Under the pieces are notes generated by a model. It was not told the DNA's origin. It made no database searches and saw only the letters and a list, made by a program, of their open reading frames with translations. This document shows positions 16,982 through 23,945 of a DNA stretch of 64,000 bases, piece after piece. Position numbers and translations under genes: made by a program. How positions within the stretch are numbered: position 1 is the stretch's first letter; each line of letters starts with the position of its first letter. Origin of the DNA: a bacterium (GTDB lineage: Bacteria > Krumholzibacteriota > Krumholzibacteriia > Krumholzibacteriales > Krumholzibacteriaceae); the NCBI GenBank assembly GCA_020350885.1, contig CP070727.1, positions 2,744,498 to 2,808,497 on the forward strand, in the 5' to 3' direction.

Positions 16982-18583
16982 ATGATTATCCCGATCGGCA
17001 CAAAATCGTCACTTGCACTCAAACCGATGCTGACGATCGGCCTTATCGTCACCAATGTCATCATCGCTATGATAACCTTCCCTCTGTCGATGGGAACGGA
17101 GAAATCCCTGTTCAAGGTTCGCAGGGACCGTTACGCCGAGCAGGTAAAGTTATACATCTCAGAGCATGGTGATTCAGATGGCTCGTACAACATCTATATT
17201 CAAAGACAGATCGACCGTTCCATAAAGGAGATCGAGAACGCGGAAGACTACTTCGACCTCGAGATGGCGATCATGGATGCGATTCTCCTCTCGGGTGCCT
17301 CATTCGAAGATCTGGAGGAATTCGGCACGGAGCTCGCCGAGCGCACCGACCTCGATTATATCAATGCCGAATTTGACCAATCCGAATCGTTCTCCGAATG
17401 GAAACGATTGATGGCTAAGGAAGAGAAAGTTATCCAGGGCAACGTTTCCTTCGCCTTCGGGCTTGTCCCGAGCAAAATGGACCGGGTTCATACATTCATC
17501 ACCCATATCTTCCTGCACGGCGGTATATGGCACCTGCTCGGCAACATGCTCTTCCTTTGGGTCGTTGGGTGCCTCATGGAAGACAGCTGGGGACGCATCC
17601 CCTTTCTCGTCTTTTACCTCTGCGGTGGTGTCTTTGCGGGGCTCGCCCATTGCCTGCAGGATACCTCGTCGGCGATGCCGCTCATCGGCGCTTCGGGAGC
17701 CATCGCCGCCGCAATGGGCGCCTTCACCATCAGACACTTTTGGACAAAGATCAAATTCTTCTACTTCTTCATCTTCTTATTCAGGCCGTTATGGGGCACC
17801 TTCCATCTTCCCGCCTGTGTCTTCCTGCCATTCTGGTTCCTCCAGCAGATAACGCTCAAATACCTCTCCGACTTCATGGGAGGTTCAGATGTGGCATACC
17901 TGGCGCACATCGCCGGATACATCGGCGGTCTCAGCACAGCTCTGGTCTTCAAGGCGACCAATTTCGAGCAACAGTTCCTCGCGCCCAGGGTCCAGCGCAA
18001 GCAGGTCGAGGCGGGGGTACTCAAGGATCCGCGCTTCGACGAGGCATGCAACCTGATCGACCGCAAACAGATCGACAAGGCCCGGCAGCTCTTCACCAAG
18101 CTCGTCGCCGATCGCCCCGAGGATCTCACGACGATCCAGGATATCGCCATGATCTACAAGGAGAACGGCCTCACCAAGGATTACAACATGCTTGCGGACA
18201 AGATCCTCAAGAGTGCACTGCTCACCTCCCAGTTCGAGGAAGCTGCCAGCATCTCACTCGAAATCATCGCCGCCCAGGAACCGGTCCCGGTGAATCCACA
18301 GTACATGATGAGGACCGGTAAGTGGCTTGCTGACAACGATCAGCATGGACAGGCTCATGACATCTACCGATGGGTTATAAAGAACTCCTTCTCGCCGCAG
18401 GTTGCCGCAAAGGCGTCCCTATCACTGGCACGGCTCTATATGGGGCCGATGGATAACCCAAGGAATGCCATGGATATCCTCGAGGAGGCATCGGAGCTCC
18501 CGCTCGATGCCGAATGGATGGAACGGATAACAGAGATGAAAGATTCCGTAGCCAAACATATTCCTGTAGGTTCTAAGGTCTAA
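16982..18583 (+). CDS. Rhomboid intramembrane serine protease with C-terminal TPR-like region
   Basis: Membrane protease of the rhomboid family, cutting transmembrane substrates within the bilayer. The rhomboid core spans about residues 150-325: HIFLHGGIWHLLGNMLFLWV (the conserved H and GN segment), the catalytic serine S238 in IGASGAIAAAMG and the catalytic histidine H309 in LAHIAGYIGG. A soluble stretch of about 110 residues lies between the first helix and the core. The C-terminal part (about 340-520) is helical and TPR-like (DEACNLIDRKQIDKARQLF). The protein is 533 aa, long for the family because of these additions. The start ATG 16982 follows GGAGG by several bases. Substrate is unknown. 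Confidence 0.9.
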   Translation: MIIPIGTKSSLALKPMLTIGLIVTNVIIAMITFPLSMGTEKSLFKVRRDRYAEQVKLYISEHGDSDGSYNIYIQRQIDRSIKEIENAEDYFDLEMAIMDAILLSGASFEDLEEFGTELAERTDLDYINAEFDQSESFSEWKRLMAKEEKVIQGNVSFAFGLVPSKMDRVHTFITHIFLHGGIWHLLGNMLFLWVVGCLMEDSWGRIPFLVFYLCGGVFAGLAHCLQDTSSAMPLIGASGAIAAAMGAFTIRHFWTKIKFFYFFIFLFRPLWGTFHLPACVFLPFWFLQQITLKYLSDFMGGSDVAYLAHIAGYIGGLSTALVFKATNFEQQFLAPRVQRKQVEAGVLKDPRFDEACNLIDRKQIDKARQLFTKLVADRPEDLTTIQDIAMIYKENGLTKDYNMLADKILKSALLTSQFEEAASISLEIIAAQEPVPVNPQYMMRTGKWLADNDQHGQAHDIYRWVIKNSFSPQVAAKASLSLARLYMGPMDNPRNAMDILEEASELPLDAEWMERITEMKDSVAKHIPVGSKV

Positions 18584-18851: not shown

Positions 18852-20075
18852 TTACAGATAATGAATCACCTCACGTAAGACACCGGTGAGGTTCTCGATC
18901 TCGCCGACAAGCCGGCATCGTATCCTGCCTCCCCTATCGATAATGAACGTGGTGGGTGTACCCATTATATTGAGCACGTTTCTGGCGTACCGATCGCTGT
19001 CGAGCAGAATAGGAAAGGTAGCACCGGTCTCTCCGAGAACCTTCCGCGTCCCTGTGAGATTACCCGTTACCTCGAGGACGAGTACCTTTGCTCCAAGCCC
19101 CGCCTCGTTCTCGTACGCCTCCTGTAGCTGCGGAACCTCCGCAACGCACGGCGGTCAGGTCGGGCTCCAGACGGATATCACCAGAACGGTCCCCCGGTAA
19201 TCGCTCAAACGATAACTTCTTCCCTCGAGATTCACAAAGTGCCGGTCGGCAAGTTCCCCTTCATCCTTGATCCGAGCCTGTATGATTCTCTGCGGCAAAT
19301 TCTGGGACGACCCATTGACGAACGCATAGAGACTGTCCAGCGCCACATCGTCCCATGCACCGGGGCGAACGGCGACGAGACGAATGTACACCTCGAGCGC
19401 TTCCTCCCGTTTGCCCTCTTCCCATAGGATCCTACCCAGGAGCTCGTCGGACATAGGATTGCCGGCAGCCCGGGCGGCGAACTCGTAAGCTTCCTTCCGC
19501 CTCCCCATACCGTCCAGATGGATTGCGAGGATCGCCTGGCCCTGGGATCGTTCGATGTCGTTGGAGGCAAGCTCGAGCGCACGTCGGAAGCACCGCTCCG
19601 CCAGTGTCTCTCTATCCTCCTCGTCCATGAGGTAGTATCCCATGTATAGAAACAGTCGGAAGTACCGCTCGTCACCTTCGCATAAGCGCTCGGCGAGCCC
19701 GATCGCCTGCGCCCTCTCGGCCTTCCAGAGATACGCAAACTGCCGGTAGAGCAGGCTCCCACGCACCACCGGATCGGTCTCTCCCGAGAGCACGCCGTCG
19801 TAATACCGGAGGGCGGCGGGAAGGTCCTCGAGATCATCGGCTATCGTTTCGAAGATCCTACGGTGCCCGAGGACATGATACGGATGGTTCGTGTGGTTAC
19901 CGACGAAGAGCTTCAACCGCTCGAGCCGTTCCTCCGGATCGCTCACAGCAGAGGCCGCTTCGAACTCCTCCAGAATGTATAGTGCCGATGTGCCCGGCTT
20001 GTCCGAACAACCGGAATTGAGATGGGCGAAGATCACCAGGAATACGAGTGCGGCAAGGGCAATCCTATTTCGCAT
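18852..20075 (-). CDS. Predicted selenoprotein: TPR lipoprotein with C-terminal TlpA/thioredoxin domain (in-frame TGA read as Sec)
   Basis: The frame carries one TGA at 19157-19155. Before it: a lipoprotein signal (LVFLVIFAHLNSGCSDKP), then helical TPR-like repeats (about residues 35-255), then HFVNLEGRSYRLSDYRGTVL, the usual lead-in of TlpA/AhpC-TSA domains. At the TGA the sequence is VISVWSPT-U-PPCVAEVPQL. TlpA proteins read W-x-x-W-C-P-P-C here, so the TGA sits exactly at the first redox cysteine (residue 307; C310 follows). The frame stays open to TAA 18852 and contains the cis-proline segment IMGTPTTFIIDRGGRIRC. A SECIS-like hairpin follows the TGA. It would be a periplasm-facing lipoprotein thiol oxidoreductase of 407 aa. 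Start ATG 20075 has AAAGGAG upstream and directly follows the glycosyltransferase stop. Read as two genes or a pseudogene, the N-terminal piece would be 306 aa. Confidence 0.85.
19127..19145 (-). promoter_or_regulatory. SECIS-like hairpin for selenocysteine insertion
   Basis: Nine nucleotides after the TGA the mRNA can form a 7-bp stem, GUUGCGG with CCGCAGC (one G-U pair), closed by the loop AGGUU. The Escherichia coli fdhF element has loop AGGUCU beginning 17 nt after its UGA; here the loop begins after 16 nt. The loop GGU agrees with the bases SelB reads. The hairpin lies within coding sequence, as in bacteria generally. Confidence 0.65.
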
Positions 20076-20076
20076 A

Positions 20077-21222
20077 TCAGCTCCTTTCTCGTTCCTTTCC
20101 AAGCCCGTTCAGGATGAGATCCGCCATTGCGTCGGCACGCACCTGCCAGCTGCTTTCCCTGGCAAACGCTACGAGCTTCTGGCGATCCACACCCCGTTCG
20201 AGGGCGATTCGAACCTTTTCCACAAATCCATCGGCAGACTCCGCAAGGTAGATAATATCTGCCATGGCTTCCATATCCTCAGAGTATTTCATCGTTACGA
20301 TCGGCTTGCCTGCGGCGGCGTATTCGTAGAGTTTGTTGGGATCGGCCATCCGTCGGAGTTCGGTTACCTTGAGCGGGATGAGACACACATCCATTGCAGC
20401 GATGTATCCTCCGAGCTGGCCGTAGGGTCGCGACCCGAGATGGTGGATGTTACGGTGCCGCTCGAGTAGATTGCCGAGCTCCCCCTCGAGGTTGCGATAC
20501 ACGGGGCCGACCAGGACGAGGGATGCCTCGGGAAAGTCGCATGCAAGCCGACCGATCAGCCCAAAATCGAACCAGTGTGCGATTGCCCCGACGTATCCAA
20601 TAACGGGCTTCGCCAGGTTGCGGAGTTCATCGGGAACACCGGCGGCGGCTGCTTCACTGAACAGATCGTAATCCACGCCGTTGGCGACCCTTTGGACCGC
20701 ACCTGCTCCGGTTTTCTTGAGCAGATCGACCAGCCCGCCGCTCACGGCCACAGTGATGTCTGCTTCACGAACCAACCTCTCGAAATAGCCTGACGCCCAT
20801 GCGGGGGTATTCTCGAATCCGAGAGGATCGTCGTTGCAATCATAGAGCATAACAGAGCGCGACAGGTGTCCAAGTACGGCGGCGTAATAGATGTTTGAAA
20901 CGTAAAAGATACGACGGTGCCCCGCGAAGCCCGTAACGATGAAGACGACATTGAGCCACAGGTACATGACCACATTCCAGAGGAACCTGAAGAGAGGAAT
21001 CGAGAACATGGCGCGGATCGCCGCCTGGGGAAAATTCTTGAAGATGGGGATGCACACATGCACAACCCGCCCGTCCCGCTTCGGCAGGAAGTTGTTCCGC
21101 TTGCCCTGTACAACGGTGGAGAGAAAGAGGATCTCCCAGTCCCGGGGAAAACGGGTGAGTATCTGCTGCTTCCTCGTACGGAGGTAATGCCACTGGATCT
21201 CCGAGAAACATACGATCTTCAT
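20077..21222 (-). CDS. Glycosyltransferase, GT-B fold
   Basis: Cytoplasmic GT-B glycosyltransferase (GT1/GT4-like) of about 381 aa. The N-terminal half reads VCFSEIQWHYLRTRKQQIL and has the acceptor-side Rossmann segments, including VMLYDCNDDPLGF. The donor-binding half has VANGVDYDLF, KPVIGYVGAIAHWFDFGL, the family glycine-rich start, and LIPLKVTELRRMADPNKLYEY with the E-P/N-K-L pattern that binds the nucleotide sugar. ATG 21222 is chosen over ATG 21234, because conserved sequence starts with MKIVCFSE. It sits in an operon with the DegT aminotransferase and GT4 gene upstream and the selenoprotein directly downstream, which suggests a role in surface glycan assembly. Sugar specificity is unknown. 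Confidence 0.88.
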   Translation of the reverse strand: MKIVCFSEIQWHYLRTRKQQILTRFPRDWEILFLSTVVQGKRNNFLPKRDGRVVHVCIPIFKNFPQAAIRAMFSIPLFRFLWNVVMYLWLNVVFIVTGFAGHRRIFYVSNIYYAAVLGHLSRSVMLYDCNDDPLGFENTPAWASGYFERLVREADITVAVSGGLVDLLKKTGAGAVQRVANGVDYDLFSEAAAAGVPDELRNLAKPVIGYVGAIAHWFDFGLIGRLACDFPEASLVLVGPVYRNLEGELGNLLERHRNIHHLGSRPYGQLGGYIAAMDVCLIPLKVTELRRMADPNKLYEYAAAGKPIVTMKYSEDMEAMADIIYLAESADGFVEKVRIALERGVDRQKLVAFARESSWQVRADAMADLILNGLGKERERS

Positions 21223-21270
21223 ACCGCACCCCATCCGTACACCGCGATCAATCCGGCCCGTGGCGAATAC

Positions 21271-22395
21271 TCAGAGCCGGCCCTGGAAGAAGCCCGTGAT
21301 CCTCTCGGCTACGTACTCCTGTTGCCCCTTCTCGAGCTCCGGATATATAGGAAGGGCAAGCGTCTCCCGCGACGCACGCTCGGCCTCGGGGAAATCCCCC
21401 TCCCGGTAGCCCAAAGATGAAAAACATTTCTGAAGATGAAGAGGAACGGGATAATAGATCTCGCATCCGATTCCGTTCTCGATGCAGAACGCCTTGCACT
21501 CGTTGCGCCGTTGGATTCGTATCACGTACTGATTGAAGACCGGAACGTTCCCTTCGGTAACAGGAGGTACCGTTACCTCGGGTACCTCCGAGAAGAGCTC
21601 GTGGTAATAGGCGGCGCGCTCGCGCCTGAGCTCGTTCCATTCCTCGAGATACCCGAGCTTGACGGTCAGAACCGCAGCCTGAATTGCATCGAGCCTGCTG
21701 TTGATACCGACGAAATCGTGGAAGTAACGCTCCCGTGAGCCGTGAACACGAAGGATCCTGATGTTCTGCGCGAGCCTCACATCATCCGTTGTGATCATTC
21801 CCCCGTCTCCATATCCGCCGAGGTTCTTCGAAGGGAAGAAGGAGAAACAACCCACCGAGCCCATCGAGCCCGCCGATCTGCCCTTGTAGCTGGCCCCGAT
21901 CGCCTGGCACGCGTCCTCTATGACGGGCACTCCCCGCTCGCCGCCGAGCGCCAGTATCGGATCCATATCGGCCGTCTGCCCGAAGAGATGAACGACGATG
22001 ACGGCCTTCGTACGGGCCGTTATCGAATCCCGAATACTCGCCGGATCGATATTGAAGGTAGCTGGATCGATATCAGCGAAGACCGGCCGTGCTCCCAGTC
22101 GCGTAATCGAGCTCACGGTAGAGAAGAAAGTATAGGGTGTCGTGATTACCTCGTCACCCTCCCGGACACCTAAAGCCATGAGCGCCAGCAAGAGCGCATC
22201 GCTGCCCGATGCGCACCCGACCGCGTGCTCGACACGGCAGAAGTCTGCGATACGTCCCTCGAGCGTTTCAACAGGCGAACCCAGGATAAACTGCTGGGTG
22301 GAAAGCACGCCGCCGATCGCTTCGAATATCTCGTCCTTGATCCGCTCGTATTGTGGGACGAGATCGAGTAACTTGACCTTCACGCTCTGCTTCAC
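21271..22395 (-). CDS. DegT/DnrJ/EryC1/StrS-family sugar aminotransferase
   Basis: PLP-dependent enzyme that transfers an amino group to a nucleotide-linked keto sugar. The family pattern is complete over 374 aa: FILGSPVETLE, CASGSDALLLAL, TTPYTFFSTVSSI, VIEDACQAIGASYKG, and FSFFPSKNLGGYGDGG with the PLP lysine K190. The C-terminal region has VHGSRERYFHDFVGINSRLD and the proline-rich YYPVPLHLQKCF. It overlaps the preceding glycosyltransferase gene by 4 bp (ATGA type), so translation is coupled. The product is likely an amino sugar for the surface polysaccharide. Exact sugar is unknown. Confidence 0.92.
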   Translation of the reverse strand: MKQSVKVKLLDLVPQYERIKDEIFEAIGGVLSTQQFILGSPVETLEGRIADFCRVEHAVGCASGSDALLLALMALGVREGDEVITTPYTFFSTVSSITRLGARPVFADIDPATFNIDPASIRDSITARTKAVIVVHLFGQTADMDPILALGGERGVPVIEDACQAIGASYKGRSAGSMGSVGCFSFFPSKNLGGYGDGGMITTDDVRLAQNIRILRVHGSRERYFHDFVGINSRLDAIQAAVLTVKLGYLEEWNELRRERAAYYHELFSEVPEVTVPPVTEGNVPVFNQYVIRIQRRNECKAFCIENGIGCEIYYPVPLHLQKCFSSLGYREGDFPEAERASRETLALPIYPELEKGQQEYVAERITGFFQGRL

Positions 22396-23600
22396 TCCCC
22401 ATTCATGGTTTCTTTGAGATCCCGATAGAGCTGTACGAGCTCCCTGCTCGTGTGGTCCCAGTGGTACCGGTCGAGAAACGCCGCACGGCCCGCCTGGGAT
22501 ATCCGTGTCCGCAGATTCTCGCTCTCGTGGATGCTGAGAATCTTATCGGCCAGGTCCCGGGGGTCATCGTAGCGGAAATGGAGCCCGCCTCCCGAGTCAT
22601 CGATCACCCGGCGCAGCGGCGGGCAATCGCTCACCACGACGGGCTTACCCACCATCATGTACTGAAAGATCTTGTGGGGAATGGTCGTGTCCGTATGGGG
22701 ATTCCGTGCATGAGGAACGAGGCAGACGTCGCTCGCCTCAATATAGCTCCAGATCTTCTCAAAGGGCTGCCACCCGGTCATCTCGAGGACATCCGTGCAA
22801 TGGAGCCCGGAGGCCAGCTGCGCCAGGTATCGGCGGTACCCCTCGTTCCGGTCACCGACCAGCACGAGCCGGATACCGGGTATACGCTCCCTCAGCAGGG
22901 GCAGCGCCTGCACCGTAACATCGAGCCCCCTGTGCGGTGCGAAACCCCCGATATAGGATATTACGAAATGATCACGGTAGCGGTCCGTGATCGTCCGATC
23001 GATCGGGATCTCTTCCCGCTTCTTGCTTGCCGTGTTCGGCACCACATAGATCTTACCGGGCGGTATCCCCAGTCCCGTTATCCGTTCCTTCGACTCCTCG
23101 ATCACGACGACGACGGCGGCGACCCGTTGAAGAATGCTCCGTTCGTACCGCGACCACCTGCCGTAGTTATAGATCGTCCTTTTCTTGAGCTCACTCGTGT
23201 ACCATACCTGGAGCCCCGCCGGATAGTTCTCATGAAGATCGGCGACAACAGGCAGTCCACGCGCCGCCCCGACGCTCACCGCCTCGTTCACTAGGGGGAG
23301 GTCGTGCACATGCAGCACCTCGATCCCCCGATCGCGAACAAAGGCCTCGATCGCCCCGTGCCAGAGGGGATCACGGAATGTGTACGAGAATGTATAACGG
23401 TGCCATTTCTCCCTGAGCAGTCCCATCGTAACACCGCGCAGGAAACGTATCCCGTCTGCCGTCTCCTCCCTCCGCTCACCTCTCCCCCGTTCGAGGAGCA
23501 GATGGACCTCGTGCCCCGCCTCGATCAAGGTCTGTGCTTCCTTCTCGACCCTGATATCCGGCGGAGGAATCCTCGCCTTGAGAATCATACCGATGCGCAT
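22392..23600 (-). CDS. Glycosyltransferase family 4
   Basis: GT-B fold retaining glycosyltransferase of 402 aa. The N-terminal domain begins MRIGMILKARIPPPDIRVEK and contains HVHDLPLVNEAVSVG. The C-terminal domain has ISYIGGFAPHRGLDV, LVLVGDRNEGYRRYL and SDVCLVPHARNPHTDTTIPHKIFQYM, matching the GT4 donor-binding region. The frame is open to 23693, but ATG 23600 is preceded by GAAGGA and starts at conserved sequence. It is the first gene of a leftward operon running through the DegT aminotransferase and second glycosyltransferase to the selenoprotein. The 345-bp spacer upstream (23601-23945) should carry divergent promoters. Confidence 0.9.
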   Translation of the reverse strand: MRIGMILKARIPPPDIRVEKEAQTLIEAGHEVHLLLERGRGERREETADGIRFLRGVTMGLLREKWHRYTFSYTFRDPLWHGAIEAFVRDRGIEVLHVHDLPLVNEAVSVGAARGLPVVADLHENYPAGLQVWYTSELKKRTIYNYGRWSRYERSILQRVAAVVVVIEESKERITGLGIPPGKIYVVPNTASKKREEIPIDRTITDRYRDHFVISYIGGFAPHRGLDVTVQALPLLRERIPGIRLVLVGDRNEGYRRYLAQLASGLHCTDVLEMTGWQPFEKIWSYIEASDVCLVPHARNPHTDTTIPHKIFQYMMVGKPVVVSDCPPLRRVIDDSGGGLHFRYDDPRDLADKILSIHESENLRTRISQAGRAAFLDRYHWDHTSRELVQLYRDLKETMNGE

Positions 23601-23945
23601 GGCATAAAATCCTTCTTCACTGGGCGGCCCCACCTCGTCGGGCCGGTCACAGCGGCCCGACGACCACCCACATACAATCCCAGCAGCACTCAAACGGTAA
23701 CAGCAATAAGTCAGTATAGAATGAGGCGTTGATTCGGTAAAGCCTAACTTGCACGAGATGCCGGTGGAGGGTTACTGCGCTCGTTCGGTGGGGGAAGCTG
23801 CCGCCCCTTCGCCCGGCAGGATCACCCCTACCCCACAACCGCGGAAACATCCACAACCGGTTTTATCCCTTTCCGGTGCCTTCACGATCCAATATCATGG
23901 CACCGAATCGCGACTCCGACTGTCCTCTCTGGGAAAGGAGCGTCA
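23601..23945. other. Divergent spacer, no gene seen
   Basis: This stretch lies between the leftward glycan operon and the rightward methyltransferase gene. I found no convincing coding frame, repeat or RNA structure in it. It probably holds both promoters, none of which I can place by eye. Confidence 0.4.

What the first reader, a model, noticed from the sequence alone, without database searches (positions are those of the whole stretch)
18852..20075. Undescribed-looking selenoprotein: TPR lipoprotein with a UxxC TlpA domain
An in-frame TGA sits exactly where TlpA-type proteins have the first Cys of CxxC (W-S-P-T-U-P-P-C). The frame stays open for about 100 codons with conserved thioredoxin-fold features (cis-Pro segment GTPTTFIID), and a signal for lipid attachment and TPR repeats lie before it. 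TGA serves as a normal stop elsewhere in the window (for example tldD), so the code is not altered. Selenocysteine in place of the first redox Cys is established for bacterial thioredoxin-like proteins; the combination with a TPR lipoprotein at the end of a glycan operon is not one I know. An ordinary gene finder truncates this protein and loses its catalytic domain.
Basis: partly seen in the sequence, partly recalled or inferred. Interest (0 to 1): 0.88.

Follow-up and report, generated by a model that had tools for sequence, protein, structure and literature searches.

The report
Selenocysteine-containing envelope redox lipoprotein family
A bacterial gene that normal annotation would cut short at a TGA codon really continues through it: TGA here encodes selenocysteine at the active site of a membrane-anchored redox protein, and the same TGA is kept in all 24 related genes that could be checked, making this a well-supported new variant of a known class of selenoproteins.

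Summary
Confirmed. The in-frame TGA (19157-19155, minus strand) falls at the first redox position of a TlpA/ResA-type thioredoxin domain (WSPT-U-PPC) in a lipobox + TPR protein. The 4.1 Mb single-contig genome (Candidatus Krumholzibacteriota, inferred from relatives) has selA, selB, selD and a tRNA-Sec (TCA anticodon) 562 bp left of the window. All 24 family members in which the site is sequenced have TGA there; none has Cys. A stem-loop 10 nt after the TGA meets the published bacterial-SECIS constraints; three of its six pairs are kept by compensatory changes, and the codons beneath it show the strongest synonymous conservation in the gene. TGA still ends 13 of the same 24 genes about 100 codons later, so the code is not altered. 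UxxC TlpA/redoxin selenoproteins are already catalogued, but none I found has the TPR-lipoprotein layout, and no NCBIfam model claims it: a new variant of a known kind. Best guess at function: an envelope thiol-disulfide reductase supplied by DsbD/CcdA. The link to the upstream glycan genes is weak, because relatives without them keep the selenoprotein.

The parts
18852..20075 (-). Full selenoprotein gene, 407 aa with Sec at residue 307, TAA stop at 18854-18852
20081..20086 (-). Shine-Dalgarno-like AAGGAG before the ATG at 20075
   Evidence: sequence
20007..20075 (-). Signal peptide with lipobox; Cys23 (20009-20007) is the predicted lipid-attachment site
   Evidence: Cys23 invariant, preceded by G/A/S, in 20 aligned members
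19368..19985 (-). TPR-type helical solenoid, residues 31-236
18855..19250 (-). TlpA/ResA-type thioredoxin domain, residues 276-407
19155..19157 (-). Sec-encoding TGA (residue 307)
   Evidence: TGA in 24 of 24 family members with the site
19146..19148 (-). Cys310, second redox residue of the UxxC motif
   Evidence: invariant
19128..19144 (-). Bacterial SECIS stem-loop: TTGCGG / AGGTT loop / CCGCAG, starting 10 nt after the TGA
18954..18956 (-). cis-Pro374 of the thioredoxin fold (GTPTTFIID)
   Evidence: invariant
20077..23693 (-). Upstream gene run: glycosyltransferase (22392-23693), DegT/DnrJ/EryC1 aminotransferase (21271-22395), glycosyltransferase (20077-21234); the stop of the last lies 1 nt before the selenoprotein ATG

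Best explanation
The gene encodes a selenoprotein: an exported, lipid-anchored protein with a TPR solenoid followed by a TlpA/ResA-type thioredoxin domain whose nucleophile is selenocysteine (U307-P-P-C310). SelB with tRNA-Sec reads the TGA as Sec, directed by the stem-loop immediately downstream (strongly supported by comparative evidence). Working outside the cytoplasm, the selenolate attacks disulfides in client proteins, Cys310 resolves the mixed selenenyl-sulfide, and a DsbD/CcdA-type membrane transporter re-reduces the pair (inferred from the fold and from a DsbD-type gene in the genome). The TPR part most likely holds the client or a partner near the active site (inference). The most likely role is a disulfide reductase for periplasmic or outer-envelope proteins.
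For: TGA at the same codon in 24 of 24 members from three GTDB families, pairwise identity down to 34% among the 21 close ones. selA 480.9 bits, selB 380 bits and selD 363.2 bits, all over their cut-offs. tRNA-Sec 72.5 bits, TCA anticodon. SECIS: RNAalifold found the 6-bp helix unprompted; 99.3% of cells pair and 3 pairs have compensatory changes (5 of 500 shuffles reach that; slid versions give at most 1). It meets the four published bSECIS constraints: 5-nt loop and 6-bp stem, G at loop position 2 followed by G/U, 16-nt spacing, MFE -12.2. Residues 311-316 have mean same-residue codon identity 0.94 against 0.43 elsewhere, the highest window in the gene. TlpA/ResA fold by sequence: 3kcm 2.4e-17, ResA 6e-14. 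DsbD-type transporter, 180.5 bits. Lipobox Cys invariant.
Against: No mass-spectrometric or selenium-labelling evidence. The thioredoxin domain could not be modelled well (pLDDT about 30 with a two-row alignment). The reductase direction, the client and the electron donor are inferred. One member (L051) does not form the SECIS helix as its minimum-energy structure when folded alone. PF00578/PF08534 also include peroxidases.
Confidence: 0.85

Rival explanations
1. The TGA is a real stop or a sequence error, and the downstream thioredoxin domain is a remnant.
For: A solitary TGA replacing a conserved Trp does occur elsewhere in this assembly, in a PrxQ-like gene, so stray in-frame TGAs exist.
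Against: 24 of 24 members from separate genomes have the TGA, the downstream domain is conserved, and there is a covarying SECIS.
Confidence: 0.01
2. Conditional decoding: with enough selenium the full selenoprotein is made, without it a 306-aa TPR lipoprotein is released as a stable, separately useful product.
For: Termination would leave an intact TPR lipoprotein. Incomplete UGA decoding is common for selenoproteins (general knowledge).
Against: Nothing in the sequence shows that the short form is selected for; the only TPR-only members seen are ones whose contigs end there (L023, L045).
Confidence: 0.2
3. The protein is a selenium peroxidase (AhpC/PrxQ-like) rather than a disulfide reductase.
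For: Pfam's best labels are AhpC-TSA and Redoxin.
Against: The motif is UxxC placed as CxxC in ResA/TlpA, not the TxxC/TxxU peroxiredoxin motif; the best solved relatives are ResA/TlpA/DsbE-type and the best NCBIfam match is ResA.
Confidence: 0.12
4. It is a dedicated part of the adjacent glycan biosynthesis operon.
For: Start codon 1 nt after the upstream glycosyltransferase stop; the GT-aminotransferase-GT-selenoprotein order is kept in many genera.
Against: The whole neighbourhood, including unrelated genes, is syntenic. G015, G031 and G032 lack two or three of the glycan genes beside it yet keep the selenoprotein, and G033 keeps the aminotransferase but lost the selenoprotein. The distant f4 members lie in other surroundings.
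Confidence: 0.1
5. TGA is reassigned to another amino acid in this lineage.
For: In-frame TGAs in several genes.
Against: 13 of the 24 members of this very gene family end in TGA about 100 codons after the Sec TGA, and the upstream glycosyltransferase ends in TGA; the TGA-reading tRNA found is tRNA-Sec.
Confidence: 0.01

Closest known systems
UxxC TlpA-type selenoproteins: 'thiol-disulfide isomerase-like protein' (cd02966), 'UGC-containing TlpA', 'Redoxin family protein UxxC' (PMC13188914 Table 1; PMC1088965)
   Same: Thioredoxin-fold TlpA/redoxin-type domain with Sec at the first redox position
   Different: No TPR or lipoprotein is mentioned for any of them (the review text has neither 'lipoprotein' nor 'tetratricopeptide'); I could not align their sequences here
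NF041054 WAxxUGC_long (ResA-like WAxxUGC protein, NCBIfam)
   Same: Sec-bearing ResA-like domain; 19 of 20 members match its thioredoxin part
   Different: 28.4 bits against a cut-off of 300; the thioredoxin part sits at positions 84-194 of a 354-position model, here it is C-terminal after TPRs; motif SPTUxxC, not WAxxUGC
ResA / TlpA / CcmG (DsbE) thiol-disulfide reductases
   Same: Fold, motif spacing, conserved E and P after the motif, cis-Pro
   Different: These have Cys at the first redox position and no TPR part (general knowledge); scores below the family cut-offs
Second TlpA-like selenoprotein of the same genome (GYGUPPC, G000:C1 about 170.5 kb)
   Same: UxxC with PPC, bSECIS-like stem-loop
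   Different: Short, no TPR; separate clade in the tree

Membership tests
Bacterial selenoprotein (SECIS/SelB-dependent) | In-frame TGA at a functional site, conserved as TGA or replaced by Cys in homologues | tested here: met
   TGA in 24/24 family members; Cys at this site in more distant paralogues
Bacterial selenoprotein (SECIS/SelB-dependent) | selA, selB, selC, selD in the genome | tested here: met
Bacterial selenoprotein (SECIS/SelB-dependent) | bSECIS: 3-9 nt loop, 4-16 bp stem, G in first two loop positions, 16-37 nt spacing, MFE <= -7.5 | tested here: met
   constraints from PMC13188914; values
Bacterial selenoprotein (SECIS/SelB-dependent) | Selenium found in the protein | not testable with these tools
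   needs labelling or mass spectrometry
TlpA/ResA-like thiol-disulfide oxidoreductase | Thioredoxin fold with (C/U)xxC, conserved E/P after it, and cis-Pro | tested here: met
   (by sequence; the fold model of this part was poor)
TlpA/ResA-like thiol-disulfide oxidoreductase | Reductase activity toward disulfides | not testable with these tools
   biochemistry needed
NF041054 WAxxUGC_long | Curated score cut-off 300 bits | tested here: not met
   28.4 bits
Bacterial lipoprotein | Signal peptide with lipobox ending in Cys | tested here: met
   Cys23 invariant in 20 aligned rows, -1 residue G/A/S; the -3 residue is variable, so the consensus is loose
TPR protein | Helical-pair solenoid of TPR type | tested here: met
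   fold; Pfam TPR just under the gathering score

The most novel reading that the evidence does not exclude
A lineage-fixed selenoprotein family of Krumholzibacteriota in which the TPR solenoid and the Sec-thioredoxin domain form a one-chain chaperone-reductase for a specific envelope client (for instance apocytochrome c, as CcmI plus CcmG do in two chains), with Sec so strongly required that no Cys version survives: lineages keep Sec or lose the gene.
Probability: 0.25. Interest if true: 0.65.

Novelty: new variant of a known kind. Interest (0 to 1): 0.48.

Why it matters
An ordinary gene caller truncates this protein at the TGA in every genome that has it, so its catalytic domain is likely to be missing from databases. 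The family is old within its phylum (three GTDB families), was never seen with Cys among the 24 members checked, and comes from a phylum in which 78 of 80 sampled genomes have selA although I found no paper on its selenoproteins. It gives a clear case for asking why an envelope reductase should need selenium.

Tried and rejected
Rfam RF00031 (SECIS_1) search of the genome found nothing and also rang in no control genome, so it is uninformative; an all-Rfam scan of the locus gave no match. The single genome-contig scan found only one relative, a contig that ends before the TGA. Literature searches for Krumholzibacteriota plus selenoprotein gave none; plus selenocysteine gave one wastewater-reactor ecogenomics paper, not read. 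A search for further TGA-interrupted genes in the window gave only adjacent same-frame genes or weak frames; that filter was too strict to be exhaustive, since it missed the known case. A first tree with only two Cys rows was replaced by one with 18 Cys rows and 2 rows of a second Sec type. A functional link to glycan synthesis was considered and downgraded.

Full report
WHAT IS THERE. On the minus strand, an ATG at 20075 preceded by AAGGAG opens a frame that runs to a TAA at 18854-18852, interrupted once by TGA at 19157-19155. A standard ORF caller ends the gene at that TGA (19155..20102). Read through, the protein has 407 residues: signal peptide with lipobox (Cys23), a helical solenoid (31-236), and a thioredoxin domain (about 276-407) with motif WSPT-U307-PP-C310 and a cis-Pro (P374). 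Pfam gives AhpC-TSA and Redoxin above the gathering score for residues 281-391. The nearest NCBIfam model is ResA. The nearest solved chains by sequence are a thioredoxin-family protein (3kcm, from Geobacter metallireducens) and ResA proteins. The codons after the TGA score as coding in this frame.

IS IT SELENOCYSTEINE. (a) The genome (one contig of 4,125,935 bases) has selA, selB and selD above their curated cut-offs, and a tRNA-Sec of 72.5 bits with TCA anticodon at G000:C1:2743843-2743936, 562 bases left of the window. Its selD carries its own in-frame TGA. (b) Searching the 80 genomes held for the phylum, 24 family members including this one cover the site: 21 close ones in families f1 and f2 and 3 distant ones in f4 (26-28% identity). 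Every one has TGA there and none has Cys. Median pairwise identity of the close set is 44%, minimum 34%. Thirteen of the 24 end in TGA about 100 codons later, so TGA still works as a stop. (c) Ten bases after the TGA lies a 6-bp stem with a 5-base loop. RNAalifold proposed exactly this helix. Counted as given, 99.3% of cells are standard pairs, three pairs have compensatory changes (UA/GC, UA/CG, CG/UA), and every slid control is much worse. It meets the published bSECIS constraints quoted in PMC13188914: loop 5 nt, stem 6 bp, G at loop position 2 followed by G or U, spacing 16 nt, -12.2 kcal/mol. (d) Among sites where two members share an amino acid, codons are identical 43-44% of the time on average, but residues 311-316, those under the stem-loop, reach 94%, the maximum of 184 windows. 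This is what a coding-region RNA signal should leave.

A CONTROL. Stray in-frame TGAs do occur in this assembly. A PrxQ-like gene has TGA where all seven relatives aligned have Trp; that one is a mutation or error, not Sec. It shows why conservation across genomes, not the TGA itself, carries the argument.

NEIGHBOURHOOD. Directly upstream and nearly overlapping are a glycosyltransferase, a DegT-type aminotransferase and another glycosyltransferase; downstream and convergent is a rhomboid-domain protein with a long C-terminal extension. The order is kept in many genera, but so are unrelated flanking genes (phosphofructokinase, RNA methyltransferase, beta-CASP nuclease, endonuclease V), so this is general synteny. 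In G015 the selenoprotein stands next to the methyltransferase without the three glycan genes; in G031 and G032 both glycosyltransferases are missing. In G033 the selenoprotein and the rhomboid gene are both gone, leaving about 380 bases between the neighbours' matches, with no Cys replacement there. The glycan link is therefore weak.

EVOLUTION. The organism is placed in Candidatus Krumholzibacteriota because a relative in the same GTDB family (L023) bears that name (taxonomy). In a tree of thioredoxin domains the 24 Sec proteins form one group (support 93/75; 92% of bootstraps), apart from 18 Cys paralogues of the same phylum and from a second TlpA-like Sec type (GYGUxxC) present in this genome and in G001. 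selA is found in 78 of 80 phylum genomes, so Sec use looks general in the phylum. Two f1 genomes without the gene (G011, G013) are 61% and 89% complete, so their absence is uninformative.

HOW IT WORKS. Strongly supported by comparison: Sec decoding and a UxxC thioredoxin fold. Predicted from sequence: export and lipid anchoring; TPR solenoid. Inferred: the selenolate acts as nucleophile on client disulfides, Cys310 resolves, a DsbD-type transporter (683-aa open frame) supplies electrons, and TPRs hold the client. The pairing of a TPR part with a CcmG-like reductase recalls the TPR protein CcmI and CcmG of cytochrome c maturation (own knowledge), which suggests apocytochromes as one candidate client; this is speculation.

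NOVELTY. UxxC selenoproteins with TlpA/redoxin-type domains are known (PMC1088965; PMC13188914). The window protein misses every NCBIfam cut-off it was scored against by a wide margin, and the other 19 aligned members match the same ResA/TlpA-type models. I found no description of a TPR-lipoprotein fusion nor of selenoproteins in Krumholzibacteriota in the held library; papers outside that library were not seen. Hence: new variant of a known kind.

Noticed in passing
L109:2264-2878 (-), i.e. G000:C1 about 170.3-170.9 kb: A second TlpA-like selenoprotein (FFFGYG-U-PPC) in the same genome, with a stem-loop (loop GGUCCGA) 21 nt after its TGA; a relative in G001 (L084, GYGUSQC) groups with it.
   Followed up: partly
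L089:1573-1575, G000:C1 near 3414944: A PrxQ/BCP-like peroxiredoxin gene has an in-frame TGA where all seven relatives aligned have Trp: likely nonsense mutation or sequence error, not Sec.
   Followed up: yes
L017:1531-1533: selD of this genome has its own in-frame TGA (SCAG-U-ASKL), a Sec-containing selenophosphate synthetase, with a possible weak stem-loop after it.
   Followed up: partly
L001:1497-1594 (G000:C1:2743843-2743936): The tRNA-Sec gene lies only 562 bases outside the left end of the window.
   Followed up: yes
phylum-wide: 78 of 80 Krumholzibacteriota genomes have selA, so the phylum may hold many uncatalogued selenoproteins.
   Followed up: no
window 16982-18583: Conserved convergent neighbour: rhomboid-domain protein with a long C-terminal extension; lost together with the selenoprotein in G033, but absent in G025, which keeps the selenoprotein.
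   Followed up: partly
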